Below, piece by piece: positions 28,147-34,343 of a DNA stretch of 64,000 nt. Location of the stretch: positions 62,001 to 126,000 of the forward strand of contig NZ_MUNU01000014.1 of assembly GCF_002001085.1 (NCBI RefSeq). The letters are read 5' to 3'. The DNA comes from Rhodanobacter sp. B05 (GTDB taxonomy: Bacteria > Pseudomonadota > Gammaproteobacteria > Xanthomonadales > Rhodanobacteraceae). How positions within the stretch are numbered: position 1 is the stretch's first letter; the number at the start of each line of letters is the position of its first letter. The translations under genes and the position numbers were made by a program. The notes beneath the pieces are model-generated. The model was not told the DNA's origin, did not search any database, and saw nothing but the letters and a program-made list of their open reading frames with translations.

Positions 28147-28222
<76 letters not shown>

Positions 28223-28363: not shown

Positions 28364-28439
<76 letters not shown>

Positions 28440-28451
28440 ATCGGAGCCGCG

Positions 28452-28657
28452 CATTCTAATACGTGAATCAGTATCGTCAAGTCGCGATCCGACTCCCCCA
28501 TTTCTCCGTGATCCTCAAGTCTCACCGAGTGATCCATCGCGTCGTGACTCGATGATCCCTCGCACCCTGCCTCGCACACCGGAAAGCTGGCCCTCGCGGG
28601 ATTCTCGACCGGCGCCGGGCCAGTCGTGAGCACGGGGAGGTCGGCGTCTGCGGGCTC
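28452..28657. other. intergenic, no gene seen
   Basis: About 200 bp between tRNA-Gly copy 2 and the end of the STAND gene. It should contain the tRNA-Gly promoter on the minus strand. No repeat, att-like copy of the tRNA end, or open frame of note is visible. Confidence 0.4.
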
Positions 28658-31600
28658 CTAGTGCGATGCACGGCCGGCGGTGATCAAGGTGGTCACTTCA
28701 CGCATTTCCGCCAGTTGCTGCGCTTCTGTGGAAGCACCGGCAATCAGCGTGGCCGCTTCGTCCAGGGCTGTCTTGCGCCTCTCCCGGCCCTCGGCATCGG
28801 CCGCGCTGGAAATGGCGCTGACATACAGCGCATAGGCGTAGTCGTGACGAAACGTCATGCCCCGTGCACCGGCTTGCTGCTGCTGTTGATAGTACGCAAG
28901 CGCGGGTTGCAGGGCCTTTTGCGCTTCGTCGCCGCGACCTTGCATGGCTACCGCATCGGCGAGAACGGATCGGGCCCTGGACTCCTTGATCTGCGGGTCG
29001 GCTTCCGATGTCTTGTTCGGTGGAACCGCCAGCCACTGGCGCGCCAACGCTTCAGCTTGCCGGTACCGGCCGAGCCGGATAGACGCCGTGGCTGCGGTCT
29101 GAAGATCGCCATTCAACATGTTGCCCCGCAAATTGGAGGCGCCCACATCACCGGCCGGAATCCCGACTGACTCGACGCGAGCGATCACGGCTGTCGCATC
29201 CGTCAGGGCGGCCTGTGACGCGCCTTCGGTCAGTTGCACGGCACCGCCTATACCCTGCTCCGGCCTGACCAGAAGCTGACGCTTCGGGTCTTGTGGCGCG
29301 AGTTGGGCAGCGAGTTCGCCGGTGTCGCGCGCGAAGGCCTTCAGCGACTGCGCGGCCGCGGCCGTATCGCCGGTCTGCGCTTGCCAATTCGCGAGCTGGA
29401 TCCATCGAAACCACAGTACCGGGCCAAGACTGGAAGGCCGGCGCGGATCCCGCTCCAGCGCCAGCAGCGAATGCATCGTGGCGATTGCCTGCGCCACCTG
29501 GCCGCGTTCAAACTGCAGATCGGCGACCTCTCCCAGGCCCAGTGCCCAGCGGCTCCAGGAACCCAGATCGGAAGGATTGAAGCGCACCTCGTCCTCGCCC
29601 GCCCGCGCCGCCTTGTTCGCATAGTCCGCGGCGGCGGCATCGTCGTGCTGTCGTTGCGCGAGGGTTCCGAGCAATTCCGCGGCCCAGGAACGGTCGGACA
29701 GCGAGTGCAGGTCGCCGGGGCGGCGCGCCAGGATCTTCTCGGCCAGTTCGTACACCTGCTGTTCCAGCTTTTTCGCCTCGGCGATCCGGCCGAGCGACAA
29801 CAGGTGGCGCGCCTCGGAATCAGCAGCATCGGCATAGGACGAGGCAGCATTCAGATCCGACAGATCCAGCGCACCGAGGCCCTCCAGAACTTTGCGCGCC
29901 TCGTTGGAGGTGGCCACCGCCGTTTCCTGTGGCTGGGTGAAAGTGAGATAGTTCAGGGTATCCGCGTAGGCTTGCCTGACCCGCCGCGAAGGGCCTGACG
30001 TGTAGGCCAGCGGCCGCAAAAGGTCAGCCGCCTGTCGCAACTCGGCGGCAGTGCCGCGCCCGCCACCGCTGGTCCCGACGATGCTGCTGCCTTCACTGAG
30101 CAAGGTCAGGGCAAGGCCATACGTGACCGCTTCGCTGCGGTCTCCCGAGGCGCGGAGTTTTTCAAATACGGACTGGGCTGCGCCGAAACTCCTGTAAGCG
30201 GCATCCACATTGCCGCTCGCCTGCAGCGCCGCGCCTTCGCGTACCAGCGCCATCGCGCGGTTGATATGTGTTTGTGGTGTGGCCAGTTCCGCCGGCAAGC
30301 TGTCGTAGTAACCGACCGTCATGTGCGCGAGCTTGCCCAGGGTTTCCAGCCGGCCGGTGGGCGCCAGTTCATTGTAGAAATCCTCGATCAGAAAGCTGAC
30401 CAGCTTCTCGGCATCGCTGCGCGACTTCTGCGCTTCGGCTTCGGCTGCGCGTGCACGGTGCATGGCAATCCAGCCGAATGCCGCGCCGGCGACCGCAACG
30501 AGCATCAGCACCGCACAGACGCCCGCGACCATGCGCGCGCGCAGCAGCGCACGGTGCGTCGCTGCCTCGCGCTCCTGTTGCATAGCGAGCTGACGTTGCG
30601 TGGCATCGCGCGCTTCGCGCTCCTGGCGCAGGTTGCGACTGGCAACGACGACGCTGCAAAGCACGTCGTGGGTCAGCTCCACGCGGCGCATGTCGAGGCG
30701 TTCCTCGATGCGCAGCAGGCGCCGGTTGACCAGGGTTGCCAGCGTGTCCGGCGTGGCGCCTGCCGCCGCGAGCGCCTTGATCACGCGCTCTTCGGCCAGA
30801 CTCTCGCGGTAGCCGGATTCGGTGAGCAGCTCATCCTCGATCACGCGGCGCACGCCGTCCGGCTGGTCGGCCAGTGCACGTTCGTAGAACTCGCTCAGGA
30901 TCGTGTCGCGCGAACCTGCCAGCAGATCGGCTGAAATTTCCCCGCGGCCCTGCGTCTGGCGCACGGTATTGAGTTCGCGGCAAACCAGACTCAGCAGCGA
31001 CGGTTCGATTTCCGCATTGCCGAGTTCCGAACCGCCGGCGACGAAGCGCACGATCGACTCGGCCACTTCGTGCGATACGAGGCGCCCCCCGGGGTTGACC
31101 ACCGCGCTCAAGGCCTGCGCGCCGTTCATCCGTGCGAGGCGCATGCGGTTCTGGGTGATCGACGGCATGATTGTCTTCACGCCTTCGAGGTGCGCGAGAT
31201 AGTCCTCGCGCAGTGCAATCAGGATGCGATAGTCGGCGCGCGCGAAATCAAACTGTTCGGCGGCCTCGTCGTCCTGCTCCAGCCGCTGCTCCAGTACCGC
31301 TGGCGGCCGGTTTTCGACGAGGTCGGCAAGATCTTCAAGGAACTGCTTTGCGCGCAGGCGGCCGGCATCGTCGGCCTGGCCCAAGGTGAAAATCTCCTCG
31401 AACTGGTCGAAGATCAGCAGCGGCATCAATACGCCACCGTCGGCATTGCGCAACAGGTCGCCGCGATGGTGCAGGAACTCCCACAGCGATTCACCCTCGA
31501 TCGCGCTGCCCGGTCGCGTCCAGTAGCCGGCCTCAGACGTGGCGCGGAAAATGGCCTGCTTGATCTGCTCGGAGGGCACCGGGGATTCGGCGGCGTAATC

Positions 31601-31864
31601 GATGCGCACGTAGACCGGGCAATAACCTTCCCCGCGCAACCGCGGCACCAGGCCGGCGCGCAGCAACGAGGTCTTGCCGAGACCGGATTGGCCGAACAGC
31701 ACCGTCAGCAGCTTGCGCTGCACGCGGCGCGCCAATTCACCGGTTTCCTCGTCGCGGCCATGAAAATAGGCGCGGGTTTCCTCGGCATAGGAGAACAGAC
31801 CCAGCCACGGATTTTCCGGGTCGATCGTCACGGCATCGGGGGATCTGGCGTGGGGCGCGTTCAT
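28658..31864 (-). CDS. nSTAND-type NTPase with membrane helix and helical-repeat C-terminus
   Basis: 1068 residues from ATG 31864, which overlaps the stop of the SIR2-TIR gene (ATGA). The N-terminus NPWLGLFSYAEETRAYFHGRDEE leads into a STAND P-loop, GQSGLGKTS (58-66), with Walker B LLIFDQFEEIF (149-159). The STAND winged-helix end signature VELTHDVL is at about 395-402. A coiled coil (411-440) and one membrane helix follow (RMVAGVCAVLMLVAVAGAAFGWIA, about 444-467). Residues 470-1068 are Ala-rich helical repeats of TPR character (EAVTYGLALTLLSEGS, SRSVLADAVAMQGRGDEAQKALQ). STAND proteins sense a ligand with the C-terminus and oligomerise on nucleotide exchange. With a TIR protein beside it, it fits a defence sensor, by inference. 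Confidence 0.85.
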   Translation of the reverse strand: MNAPHARSPDAVTIDPENPWLGLFSYAEETRAYFHGRDEETGELARRVQRKLLTVLFGQSGLGKTSLLRAGLVPRLRGEGYCPVYVRIDYAAESPVPSEQIKQAIFRATSEAGYWTRPGSAIEGESLWEFLHHRGDLLRNADGGVLMPLLIFDQFEEIFTLGQADDAGRLRAKQFLEDLADLVENRPPAVLEQRLEQDDEAAEQFDFARADYRILIALREDYLAHLEGVKTIMPSITQNRMRLARMNGAQALSAVVNPGGRLVSHEVAESIVRFVAGGSELGNAEIEPSLLSLVCRELNTVRQTQGRGEISADLLAGSRDTILSEFYERALADQPDGVRRVIEDELLTESGYRESLAEERVIKALAAAGATPDTLATLVNRRLLRIEERLDMRRVELTHDVLCSVVVASRNLRQEREARDATQRQLAMQQEREAATHRALLRARMVAGVCAVLMLVAVAGAAFGWIAMHRARAAEAEAQKSRSDAEKLVSFLIEDFYNELAPTGRLETLGKLAHMTVGYYDSLPAELATPQTHINRAMALVREGAALQASGNVDAAYRSFGAAQSVFEKLRASGDRSEAVTYGLALTLLSEGSSIVGTSGGGRGTAAELRQAADLLRPLAYTSGPSRRVRQAYADTLNYLTFTQPQETAVATSNEARKVLEGLGALDLSDLNAASSYADAADSEARHLLSLGRIAEAKKLEQQVYELAEKILARRPGDLHSLSDRSWAAELLGTLAQRQHDDAAAADYANKAARAGEDEVRFNPSDLGSWSRWALGLGEVADLQFERGQVAQAIATMHSLLALERDPRRPSSLGPVLWFRWIQLANWQAQTGDTAAAAQSLKAFARDTGELAAQLAPQDPKRQLLVRPEQGIGGAVQLTEGASQAALTDATAVIARVESVGIPAGDVGASNLRGNMLNGDLQTAATASIRLGRYRQAEALARQWLAVPPNKTSEADPQIKESRARSVLADAVAMQGRGDEAQKALQPALAYYQQQQQAGARGMTFRHDYAYALYVSAISSAADAEGRERRKTALDEAATLIAGASTEAQQLAEMREVTTLITAGRASH

Positions 31865-33249
31865 GCCTGTCTCCCGCTGAACAGGTCGTGCAGCCGACGC
31901 AGGAACTCCGGCGGCGGTTCGCCATTGGGCATGCGCAGGATATGCAAGGCCTTGAATTGTTCCGGCACCAGCGCGTCGGACTCGCGCGTTTCGTCGATGC
32001 AGACCGGCAGGATGAACACGGCGCCCTCGGCGATGTTGCGTGCGCGATCGACCGCATAGCTCCATTCGCGACGGAAATAGGCCTCCTGACGACGCTGGGT
32101 CGACGCCGAGATGACCGGCACGAAAAAGCTGCAGCGTGCGATATTGGCGCGGATCTTTCGGTCGTAGTCGTCGCCGCCCTCAAGCCGGTCGAGGTCGAAC
32201 CAGGTGGTGAATCCGGCGGTGTCCAGCGCGGCCTTGAGGTGCTGCACGGCCGGCAGGTCTTCGCGTGCGTAGCTGATGAAGATCGCGTTCTCCGGCATCT
32301 CGCGCGCCGGCGCCAGGAAGCGCTGCGGAGCACTGCCACCGTTGGAGATCATTACCGGTCGCTGGCGCTTCGACCAGCGTGCGTGCAACTCGGCCACGAA
32401 GGCCTCGGCGCCGCCGTAGACACGCGTGCGCACGCTGACCTGCTGCAGGAATGCCACCAGCCGCGCGTCCTGCAAGGTATGGTCGTCGGCGAACACCTCG
32501 CTGACATCGCGCGGATCGGACAGTCGCCTGCGCTTGGCCATGCGCAGGAAAAGCCGCGCCAGCCAGTTTGAGAAATCGCTGCCGATCAGCAGCAGGTGAT
32601 TGTGTTCGAGTTCGTGAAAGAGCTTTTCCGGCGTGAGATGCTCGGACTGCAGCGCACAGATGAACTCGAGCATGTCCTCGTCGGAAACCACGTAGGTCGG
32701 CGAGGCGGAGAGTCGACCGAACAGGTGATAGACCACCGTGCGTTGCAGCTGGCTGCGTTCGGCCGGCAGGTCCGTGACGCGGTTTGGCGCATAGGCGATC
32801 ACTTCGGTCGCCGGCTGGCCGCCATGGCGTTCGAGATTGACCGCGTTTTCGAGCAGCGGGTCGAAGGTGGTGGTGACGAACAGGTCGAAATCGGTGATCT
32901 GCGCCAATTGCCGCAGCGCCAGCGGCGGCTCGAAATCCACTTCGCGCATGATCGAGCGCAAGCGTGTATAGGCTTCCTCGCGGCGACCGTGCTGGCCAAG
33001 GAAGCAGCACATCACGTCGTTTAGCGTAAGCGGCCGCGGCAGCCCGGCGACGTCCACCGACAGCCGCAACGCCAGTTTCTCCGCCAGCCAGTCGTACAGC
33101 GGCCGCGGCCCGCTGTCGGTGCGCACGTGCAGCAGATCCGGCCCGATGATCGGGATGACCCGGCGCTCCTCGATGTAATTGAGCAGATCGTCCCAGGCGT
33201 CTTCATCGAACGCCTGTGACGCGTCGGCCGCAGCAGCAAGCGCCGTCAT
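31861..33249 (-). CDS. SIR2-like and TIR two-domain protein
   Basis: 462 residues from ATG 33249 (GGGGAA 8 nt upstream). Residues about 28-290 are SIR2-like: VIPIIGPDLL, TDFDLFVTTTFDPLLENAV, TVVYHLFGRLSASPTYVVSDEDM, HLLLIGSDFSNWLARLF. The usual TTN(Y/F)D Asn is Thr (T128) and the usual HG His is Phe (F177), so NADase activity of this domain is doubtful. Residues about 320-460 are a TIR domain: AIFISYARED, WFDLDRLEGGDDYDRKI, CSFFVPVISAS and FRREWSYAV, with the expected catalytic Glu (E395). TIR domains can cleave NAD or make cyclic ADP-ribose signals. Domains are seen; the anti-phage role is inferred from the STAND partner. Confidence 0.85.
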   Translation of the reverse strand: MTALAAAADASQAFDEDAWDDLLNYIEERRVIPIIGPDLLHVRTDSGPRPLYDWLAEKLALRLSVDVAGLPRPLTLNDVMCCFLGQHGRREEAYTRLRSIMREVDFEPPLALRQLAQITDFDLFVTTTFDPLLENAVNLERHGGQPATEVIAYAPNRVTDLPAERSQLQRTVVYHLFGRLSASPTYVVSDEDMLEFICALQSEHLTPEKLFHELEHNHLLLIGSDFSNWLARLFLRMAKRRRLSDPRDVSEVFADDHTLQDARLVAFLQQVSVRTRVYGGAEAFVAELHARWSKRQRPVMISNGGSAPQRFLAPAREMPENAIFISYAREDLPAVQHLKAALDTAGFTTWFDLDRLEGGDDYDRKIRANIARCSFFVPVISASTQRRQEAYFRREWSYAVDRARNIAEGAVFILPVCIDETRESDALVPEQFKALHILRMPNGEPPPEFLRRLHDLFSGRQA

Positions 33250-33659
33250 GGCGTCGCTTCCCCGAGACAACGTTGCCACGCCTGCCCAATCGAGTCGATC
33301 AGGCAATCCAGGTCAAAGCACGCGGAAACGTCCAAGCGCCGCCCCCAAGCCAGAAATCGCGATTGGCCATGCCAACCGACGATCAACCAGGACCTGATGG
33401 TCGCGCTTCTGCACGCGGCCTCAACGCCGTGCGGGATCGCTTCGGATCGCCGCCGCCCGTCCCTTGGCCGGAATCTCGCAGAGAGGATCGAACCTCCGTC
33501 GCAGTGGTCAGCACGGCAGCCTGGCTGCAACTGCCCGGTAAAACTGCCGTCCGAATGCCCGTCTGCCCCTCTGTGGCGGAGAAGTCTATCAGGAATCCCG
33601 GGCGCGACGGACAGGCAGGGGCAGCGACATCAGGTGGCGCCGGGCCGCTCCGACGGCTT
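33250..33659. other. intergenic between pgsA and the SIR2-TIR gene
   Basis: About 410 bp. A minus-strand frame (33246-33530) ends in a TGA that overlaps the SIR2-TIR ATG by 4 bp, but its residues look random and it has no good start. It may contain the cassette promoter. No inverted repeat, tRNA fragment or transposase remnant is visible, so the insertion mechanism of the cassette stays unknown. Confidence 0.4.
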
Positions 33660-34271
33660 TCAGGCGTCGCCACCGGTTCCGGGGGTTTTCGGGGTGTCGC
33701 CACGCAACATCGGCCACGCTGCCCGCAGGTAGTACAGGCCCGACCAGATGGTGAGAATGCCCGCGATCACGAGCAGGCCCTCGCCGATGTGATACAGGCG
33801 CAGCGCAGCAGCCTCCTTTTCATGCTGCACGATCAGCACCACCAGGGCGACCATCTGCATCACGGTCTTGAGCTTGCCCACGAAGGCGACCTTGACGGTG
33901 GCGCTCATGCCGATTTCGGCCATCCATTCGCGCAACGCCGACACGCTGATTTCGCGGCCCACGATCACCGCCGCGGTGACCGCCATCAGGATCCCGGACC
34001 AGCCGGCGCTTGGGTGAGACTGCACCAGCAGGAACAGCGTCACCGCCACCATCAGCTTGTCGGCGACCGGATCGAGGAAGGCGCCGAACGCCGAGGTCAA
34101 ATTCATCCGCCGCGCCAGGTAGCCATCCAGCCAGTCGGTCACGGCCGCCAGCACGAAGACGATCGCCGCGGTGATGTTGTGGCCGCGAAACGGCAGGTAG
34201 AAGACCACCACCATCACCGGCAACAGGGCAACGCGGAAAAGGGTCAGCCAGGTCGGCAGGTTGATGCGCAT
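33660..34271 (-). CDS. pgsA: CDP-diacylglycerol-glycerol-3-phosphate 3-phosphatidyltransferase
   Basis: 203 residues from ATG 34271 (MRINLPTWLTLFRVALL). The CDP-alcohol phosphotransferase motif is complete: DWLDGYLARR, FGAFLDPVADK (D-G-x2-A-R-x8-G-x3-D-x3-D). Four to six membrane helices. It makes phosphatidylglycerophosphate in the inner membrane. It follows uvrC, as in E. coli, where tRNA genes glyW, cysT and leuZ come next; here a defence-like cassette intervenes. Confidence 0.95.
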   Translation of the reverse strand: MRINLPTWLTLFRVALLPVMVVVFYLPFRGHNITAAIVFVLAAVTDWLDGYLARRMNLTSAFGAFLDPVADKLMVAVTLFLLVQSHPSAGWSGILMAVTAAVIVGREISVSALREWMAEIGMSATVKVAFVGKLKTVMQMVALVVLIVQHEKEAAALRLYHIGEGLLVIAGILTIWSGLYYLRAAWPMLRGDTPKTPGTGGDA

Positions 34272-34343
34272 GATTCGTTCCGATGATTTGCTGCAGTTTC
34301 GCACGTTGACGCGGCGCCGCCACCCGCTGTCGCCCGCCAGTGT

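What the first reader, a model, noticed from the sequence alone, without database searches (positions are those of the whole stretch)
28658..33249. Candidate defence operon: SIR2-like/TIR protein coupled to an nSTAND NTPase
Two genes overlap by ATGA. The first joins an N-terminal SIR2-like domain to a C-terminal TIR domain. The second is a 1068-residue STAND NTPase with a membrane helix and a long repeat sensor-like region. SIR2 and TIR are two NAD-consuming effector types known from different anti-phage systems; having both in one chain beside a STAND switch is unusual. The cassette splits pgsA from tRNA-Gly, genes that are adjacent in E. coli, so it behaves like an island.
Basis: partly seen in the sequence, partly recalled or inferred. 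Interest (0 to 1): 0.87.

Follow-up and report, generated by a model that had tools for sequence, protein, structure and literature searches.

The report
Membrane STAND switch with TIR NADase partner
A bacterium carries an acquired two-gene immune-like switch in which a membrane-spanning ATPase receptor is paired with a protein whose SIR2 half has lost every catalytic motif while its TIR half keeps the NAD-cutting residue, so it looks like an NAD-based cell-suicide system whose killing activity moved from one enzyme domain to another.

Summary
In detail: a 462-aa SIR2-like/TIR protein (31861-33249, -) overlaps by ATGA a 1068-aa nSTAND1 NTPase (28658-31864, -). The pair is inserted between pgsA and tRNA-Gly, which are adjacent in nearly all congeners readable there. 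No other of 44 congeneric genomes has it. I found about 60 relatives in Gammaproteobacteria, Verrucomicrobia, Planctomycetes, Gemmatimonadota and Chlorobi. In 55 of 56 testable cases the SIR2-TIR gene is followed by the nSTAND gene. The key correction is that the protein does not carry two NAD-consuming effectors. The SIR2 motifs (GAGxS, TTNxD, HG) are lost in 64/64 family members, while the TIR glutamate is kept in 64/64. A sister two-gene system (Actinobacteria; an Ensifer plasmid) has the reverse: SIR2 catalytic residues intact in 5/5, no TIR, and an nSTAND partner. The NTPase keeps its Walker motifs. A TM helix follows it in 53/55 proteins, with a charge bias placing the NTPase inside and the TPR/WD40 repeats outside. 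The repeats evolve faster (omega 0.45 against 0.16). Best reading: a transmembrane STAND receptor that gates a TIR NADase through a pseudo-SIR2 adaptor, causing suicide or ADPR-type signalling. Phage defence is plausible but untested. New variant of a known kind.

The parts
31861..33249 (-). Gene 1: SIR2-like/TIR protein, 462 aa
   Evidence: relatives at 72-88% identity in Lysobacterales, Steroidobacteraceae and Opitutaceae
32356..33222 (-). Pseudo-SIR2 domain (aa 10-298): GPDLL for GAGxS, T128 for catalytic Asn (codon 32866-32868), F177 for catalytic His (codon 32719-32721)
   Evidence: fold match to SPARSA, ThsA, DSR2, KomC and Avs5 SIR2 (Z about 17-19)
31876..32292 (-). TIR domain (aa 320-458) with invariant S326, W350, D352 and catalytic-type E395 (codon 32065-32067)
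   Evidence: Pfam TIR_2; aligned to AbTIR NADase; SPARTA TIR Z 16.6; E395 in 64/64
31861..31864 (-). ATGA overlap (stop of gene 1 / start of gene 2); the same -4 overlap is found in most proteobacterial relatives
28658..31864 (-). Gene 2: nSTAND1 NTPase-TM-TPR protein, 1068 aa
30572..31822 (-). nSTAND1 NTPase (aa 15-431): Walker A FGQSGLGKT (aa 57-65) and Walker B LIFDQFEE (aa 150-157), key residues invariant
   Evidence: pairwise identity mostly 0.65-0.82 per 50-aa block
30476..30532 (-). Transmembrane helix (aa 445-463)
   Evidence: present at this position in 53/55 relatives; more K/R on the NTPase side in 47, fewer in 1
28667..30409 (-). C-terminal TPR-like superhelix (aa 486-1066), fast-evolving sensor; WD40 or other repeats in relatives
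28482..33690 (.). Extent of the inserted cassette (approximate): homology to empty-site congeners stops at about 28481-28491 and about 33690
33660..34304 (-). pgsA (flank); the 3' end of the ORF is variable
28364..28439 (-). tRNA-Gly(gcc), flank. A second tRNA-Gly at 28147-28222 is ancestral, not an insertion duplicate

Best explanation
This is a two-gene, horizontally acquired STAND receptor/effector system. Gene 2 is a membrane-anchored switch with a cytoplasmic nSTAND1 ATPase, one TM helix and an extracytoplasmic TPR superhelix that detects a ligand at the cell envelope (inferred). Ligand binding would let the NTPase oligomerise (inferred from STAND biology). Gene 1 is the effector. Its SIR2 domain is catalytically dead (inferred from complete, family-wide motif loss) and would act as the docking or oligomerisation part. 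Its TIR domain would be brought into an active assembly and cleave NAD+ through E395 (residue shown, activity inferred). The result would be NAD+ depletion and growth arrest, or an ADPR-type signal; in some relatives such a signal could act on a neighbouring SLATT membrane effector. The trigger is most likely phage or another envelope attack. A sister system with an active-type SIR2 and no TIR suggests the catalytic duty moved from SIR2 to TIR while the SIR2 fold was kept as the adaptor; the direction is inferred.
For: Pairing: the pair stays together in 55/56 testable loci, and pairwise distances of the two proteins correlate at r = 0.96 over 51 loci. SIR2 loss: no GAGxS, no Asn128 and no His177 in 64/64, while Asn and His are kept in 5/5 of the sister system. 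The columns are fixed by alignments to SeThsA 7uxt and to the Herbidospora SIR2. N110 is required in Avs5, and its HG position tolerates only H or N (PMC12931631). TIR: E395, S326, W350 and D352 in 64/64. Switch: Walker motifs invariant. Topology: TM in 53/55, positive-inside bias 47 to 1. Sensor: C-terminal/NTPase dN ratio 4.7 against dS ratio 1.4, omega 0.45 against 0.16, and TPR or WD40 swaps. Accessory nature: 0/44 congeners, empty site, proteobacterial clade next to Opitutae sequences in the tree. Context: SLATT gene 8-214 bp downstream in four loci, caspase gene in L107, TIR-TPR genes in Opitutae.
Against: No biochemical or phage data. Most flanking genes sampled in relatives are not defence genes. 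PADLOC has no model for gene 2. No phage record carries the pair. The AlphaFold model of the NTPase region is poor (pLDDT about 30-75) and no complex was predicted. TPR and WD40 repeats are usually cytoplasmic, so topology rests on hydrophobicity and charge alone. Higher omega in the sensor can also reflect relaxed constraint.
Confidence: 0.6

Rival explanations
1. Phage-defence operon with two active NADase domains: SIR2 and TIR both consume NAD+ once the STAND protein is triggered.
For: Both domains are detected above Pfam cut-offs, and the SIR2 fold matches ThsA, DSR2, KomC and Avs5.
Against: GAGxS, the catalytic Asn and the HG His are absent in 64/64, while SIR2 relatives without TIR keep them.
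Confidence: 0.06
2. Envelope-stress or self-recognition suicide or signalling module, not aimed at phage: the extracytoplasmic repeats sense envelope damage, contact or kin signals, and the TIR makes a messenger or depletes NAD.
For: TM plus outside-facing sensor; mostly housekeeping flanks; no phage carriage; several copies per Opitutae genome.
Against: Sporadic presence, an empty site in congeners and a fast-evolving sensor fit conflict with a changing opponent better than a housekeeping stress response.
Confidence: 0.28
3. The SIR2-like domain is not inert but binds NAD+, ADPR or another nucleotide as an allosteric sensor that gates TIR activity.
For: The Rossmann-like SIR2 fold is kept at high confidence (pLDDT mostly about 90), with invariant G36, D130 and G178 and a conserved H175 (56/64).
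Against: The glycine loop that contacts NAD is replaced, with P37 in 54/64; no ligand data.
Confidence: 0.3

Closest known systems
Avs5 (AVAST type 5, SIR2-STAND)
   Same: STAND NTPase coupled to a SIR2-fold module with a repeat sensor; its SIR2 domain hydrolyses NAD (PMC12931631)
   Different: Here the SIR2 domain is on a separate chain, has lost the GAGxS/TTNxD/H-or-N-G motifs and carries a TIR; the NTPase is nSTAND1 with a TM helix
Thoeris (ThsA SIR2-SLOG plus ThsB TIR)
   Same: SIR2 and TIR modules in one system; ThsA is among the best Foldseek matches to P0001
   Different: In Thoeris SIR2 is the active killer and TIR the messenger maker, on separate proteins with no STAND; here the SIR2 motifs are lost
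Actinobacterial/Ensifer SIR2 plus nSTAND pairs (L110, L209, L210, L212; I found no published description)
   Same: Two adjacent genes, SIR2_2-fold plus nSTAND
   Different: SIR2 catalytic residues intact in 5/5; no TIR
TIR-TM-TPR proteins next to SLATT genes in the same genus, including this genome at C11
   Same: TM/juxtamembrane region about 31% identical to P0002 (E about 1e-12 to 1e-14); TIR output
   Different: TIR and sensor on one chain, with no STAND and no SIR2
nSTAND1-containing conflict systems (PMC8195603; Kaur et al. 2020, PMC7159879)
   Same: nSTAND1 clade and effector/receptor logic
   Different: The pseudo-SIR2/TIR partner was not found described: 0 papers hold 'SIR2-TIR'

Membership tests
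nSTAND1 NTPase (PF20703) | Profile match above gathering score plus Walker A/B | tested here: met
   111.4 bits against 27.1; Walker residues invariant in 30 sequences
TIR NADase | TIR fold with catalytic Glu | tested here: met
   TIR_2 67.9 bits against 28; E395 aligned to the AbTIR Glu, 64/64
TIR NADase | NAD+ cleavage | not testable with these tools
   needs an enzyme assay
SIR2/sirtuin NADase effector | GAGxS, TTNxD and HG (or NG) motifs | tested here: not met
   0/64 keep the Asn, the His (or Asn at that position) or GAGxS; 5/5 in the sister system keep the Asn and His
SIR2 fold | SIR2_2 profile and fold | tested here: met
   44.6 bits against 24.5; Z up to 18.8 to DSR2/ThsA and 19.2 to SPARSA
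Avs5 | Active SIR2 and STAND in one chain | tested here: not met
   separate ORFs; motifs lost; no PADLOC hit for P0002
Thoeris | Active ThsA SIR2 plus separate ThsB TIR | tested here: not met
   SIR2 motifs lost and TIR fused to SIR2
Transmembrane receptor topology | One TM helix, NTPase side more positive | tested here: met
   53/55 with TM; K/R bias 47 to 1; a prediction, not shown experimentally
tRNA-integrated genomic island | Integrase, att repeats, insertion at the tRNA 3' end | tested here: not met
   no terminal repeat; lies 5' of tRNA-Gly; both tRNA-Gly genes ancestral; no further long ORF that looks like an integrase in the cassette (by inspection)
Anti-phage defence system | Protection from phage | not testable with these tools
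   needs phage challenge

The most novel reading that the evidence does not exclude
A bacterial transmembrane NLR-like receptor: a STAND ATPase inside the cell with its repeat sensor outside, coupled to an effector in which the NADase role passed from SIR2 to a fused TIR while the dead SIR2 was kept as adaptor.
Probability: 0.42. Interest if true: 0.8.

Novelty: new variant of a known kind. Interest (0 to 1): 0.62.

Why it matters
It suggests that SIR2 domains in immune-type systems can be kept for a non-catalytic role, perhaps assembly, after a TIR takes over catalysis. Comparing the SIR2-only and SIR2-TIR versions of one two-gene architecture makes that testable. It also suggests a STAND switch whose sensor faces outward, unlike the cytoplasmic STAND defence sensors studied so far (from general knowledge). 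It warns that 'SIR2 + TIR' annotation does not mean two NADases.

Tried and rejected
1) Two active NADases: rejected on motif loss. 2) The C11 homolog of the P0002 TM region was first taken for a Ser/Thr kinase; it is a TIR-TM-TPR protein. 3) Shared insertion site: the sampled flanks of relatives differ (RecQ, DnaG, AMP-binding enzyme and others), so there is no common hotspot. 4) Defence-island test: 79 flanking ORFs scanned with PADLOC. The leading hits (DpdF, PsyrT, DnaG-like), in two ORFs each, are consistent with the RecQ and DnaG genes identified there by Pfam, which I infer rather than checked per ORF. 5) Phage, viral and plasmid carriage: none in phages, TIR-only matches in viral contigs, one full-length relative on a megaplasmid. 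6) att or tandem repeats, terminators and RNA families: nothing relevant. 7) The N-terminal part of the SLATT protein looks SLOG-like by eye but had no Pfam match, so this is left as a lead. 8) Structure search of the whole STAND model is dominated by TPR proteins; the NTPase part was too poorly modelled to compare.

Full report
WHAT IS THERE. The two ORFs are as described. P0001 (462 aa, 31861-33249, minus) carries SIR2_2 (aa 123-247) and TIR_2 (aa 323-438). P0002 (1068 aa, 28658-31864, minus) carries nSTAND1 (aa 19-431). They overlap by ATGA. P0002 has a TM helix at aa 445-463 and an all-helical C-terminus modelled with high confidence that matches TPR superhelices, including MalT domain III (Z 21.4, rmsd 4.5, 343 residues).

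ACCESSORY STATUS. In 100 related genomes only G058 and G062 have full-length relatives of P0001, and none of the 44 congeners does; both also carry the nSTAND partner. In nearly all of 29 congeners inspected tRNA-Gly starts about 65-126 bp downstream of the end of the pgsA match. Of the exceptions, L119 has other DNA in the same place and L144 ends within the tRNA-Gly region. Here about 5.2 kb lies between. Homology to empty sites stops near 28481-28491 and near 33690. The two tRNA-Gly genes are ancestral, and no terminal repeats were found, so this is not a classical tRNA-integrated island.

A CONSERVED PAIR. A genome-contig scan returned 72 loci, nearly all in Lysobacterales and other Gammaproteobacteria, Opitutae and other Verrucomicrobia, Planctomycetes, Gemmatimonadota and Chlorobi, plus one distant actinobacterial SIR2-only homologue, L110. 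Of 56 nearly complete SIR2-TIR genes with at least 700 bp downstream, 55 are followed by an nSTAND gene, mostly with the same 4-bp overlap in Gammaproteobacteria. Distances of the two proteins correlate at r = 0.96 across 51 loci; shared species history contributes to this. In the tree the main proteobacterial clade (27 rows, support 100/99) groups with Opitutae sequences, consistent with cross-phylum transfer though not proof of it.

THE SIR2 HALF HAS LOST ITS CATALYTIC MOTIFS. Sirtuin-type NADases need GAGxS, TTNxD and HG; in Avs5, N110A abolishes defence and the H position tolerates only H or N (PMC12931631). Alignment to SeThsA (7uxt; weak, E 0.03, but both motif columns are clear) and to the Herbidospora SIR2 fixes the columns. 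In 64 family members position 128 is T, S or A, never N. Position 177 is L, M, F or V, never H or N. The GAG loop is mostly GP[DE]. The TIR residues S326, W350, D352 and E395 are invariant in 64/64. E395 aligns with the glutamate of the AbTIR NADase; its catalytic role there is established knowledge. The fold is still SIR2 (SPARSA, ThsA, DSR2, KomC, Avs5; Z about 17-19), and the TIR half matches SPARTA TIR (Z 16.6). Inference: a pseudoenzyme SIR2 joined to an active TIR.

A SISTER SYSTEM WITH THE ROLES REVERSED. Herbidospora (three copies), Nonomuraea and an Ensifer plasmid carry a TIR-less SIR2 followed by an nSTAND gene. All five keep TTNxD and HG; the glycine loop is GAGAS in three, GAGAC in one and GTGAS in one. 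The simplest reading is that NADase duty passed to a fused TIR, after which the SIR2 was kept as scaffold. The direction of change was not tested with a rooted tree.

THE SWITCH AND ITS SENSOR. Walker A and B residues are invariant. The NTPase is mostly 65-82% identical per block across 30 sequences, while the C-terminal repeats fall to 26-46%. For 459 pairs dN rises 4.7-fold in the repeats while dS rises 1.4-fold, omega 0.45 against 0.16. Other members replace the repeats with WD40 propellers or other TPR arrays. A TM helix sits just after the NTPase in 53/55 proteins, and the NTPase side has more K/R in 47 and fewer in 1. By the positive-inside rule the NTPase is cytoplasmic and the repeats extracytoplasmic. 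This is a prediction.

PARTNERS AND CONTEXT. Four loci (L039, L053, L055, L058) have a gene with SLATT-type 2TM domains on the same strand 8-214 bp after the nSTAND gene; the domains were confirmed by Pfam for L039 and the others cluster with it. SLATT is predicted in the literature to be an ADPR-derivative-regulated membrane effector (PMC9503650). In the window's genus 19 of 21 full-length homologues of that gene lie within about 6 kb downstream of an ORF with the P0002-like TM region (compare); two were confirmed as TIR-TM-TPR by Pfam and others carry the FISYSH TIR motif. The window's genome has such a pair at C11. Among genomes carrying the SIR2-TIR pair, 21 of 27 hold a SLATT homologue somewhere; genome quality and ancestry differ, so this is only suggestive. 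L107 has a caspase gene next door. Many other flanks are housekeeping genes.

MECHANISM. Shown here: pairing, motif loss and retention, repeat diversification, TM helix position, accessory distribution. Inferred: envelope-facing sensing, NTP-driven oligomerisation, SIR2 as adaptor, TIR NAD+ cleavage, cell arrest or signalling. Phage defence is likely but untested; envelope-stress or self-recognition suicide is the main rival. LIMITS: literature coverage is open-access only, the NTPase model is poor, and no complex or activity was tested.

Noticed in passing
L110:7476-10435, L209:5920-8843, L210:5917-10895, L212: Two-gene pairs of an apparently active SIR2 (no TIR) plus nSTAND in Actinobacteria and on an Ensifer adhaerens conjugative plasmid; I found no published description.
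   Followed up: partly
L149:5285-10027 (own genome C11) and about 20 congeners: Recurrent TIR-TM-TPR gene followed by a 2TM SLATT protein; looks like a separate TIR/membrane-effector system of the genus.
   Followed up: partly
L063, L066, L070, L072, L099: Genes with an N-terminal TIR lie beside the SIR2-TIR/nSTAND pair, several with TPR repeats and some in tandem.
   Followed up: no
L073-L079, L080, L082, L086, L104-L106 (Opitutae): Several SIR2-TIR/nSTAND copies per genome, tandem in L077, with WD40-type sensor in L073; possible receptor-family expansion.
   Followed up: no
L119 (G037): The congener with the most similar PgsA has unrelated DNA in the same pgsA/tRNA-Gly spacer and only one tRNA-Gly there; the spacer may take other cargo.
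   Followed up: partly
L107:14981-16795: Caspase-domain (Peptidase_C14) gene overlapping the end of the nSTAND gene, with a sub-cut-off match to the EACC1-associated caspase model.
   Followed up: no
window 33250-33660: About 400 bp between pgsA and the SIR2-TIR start with no clear gene; no consensus sigma-70-type promoter was found there.
   Followed up: no
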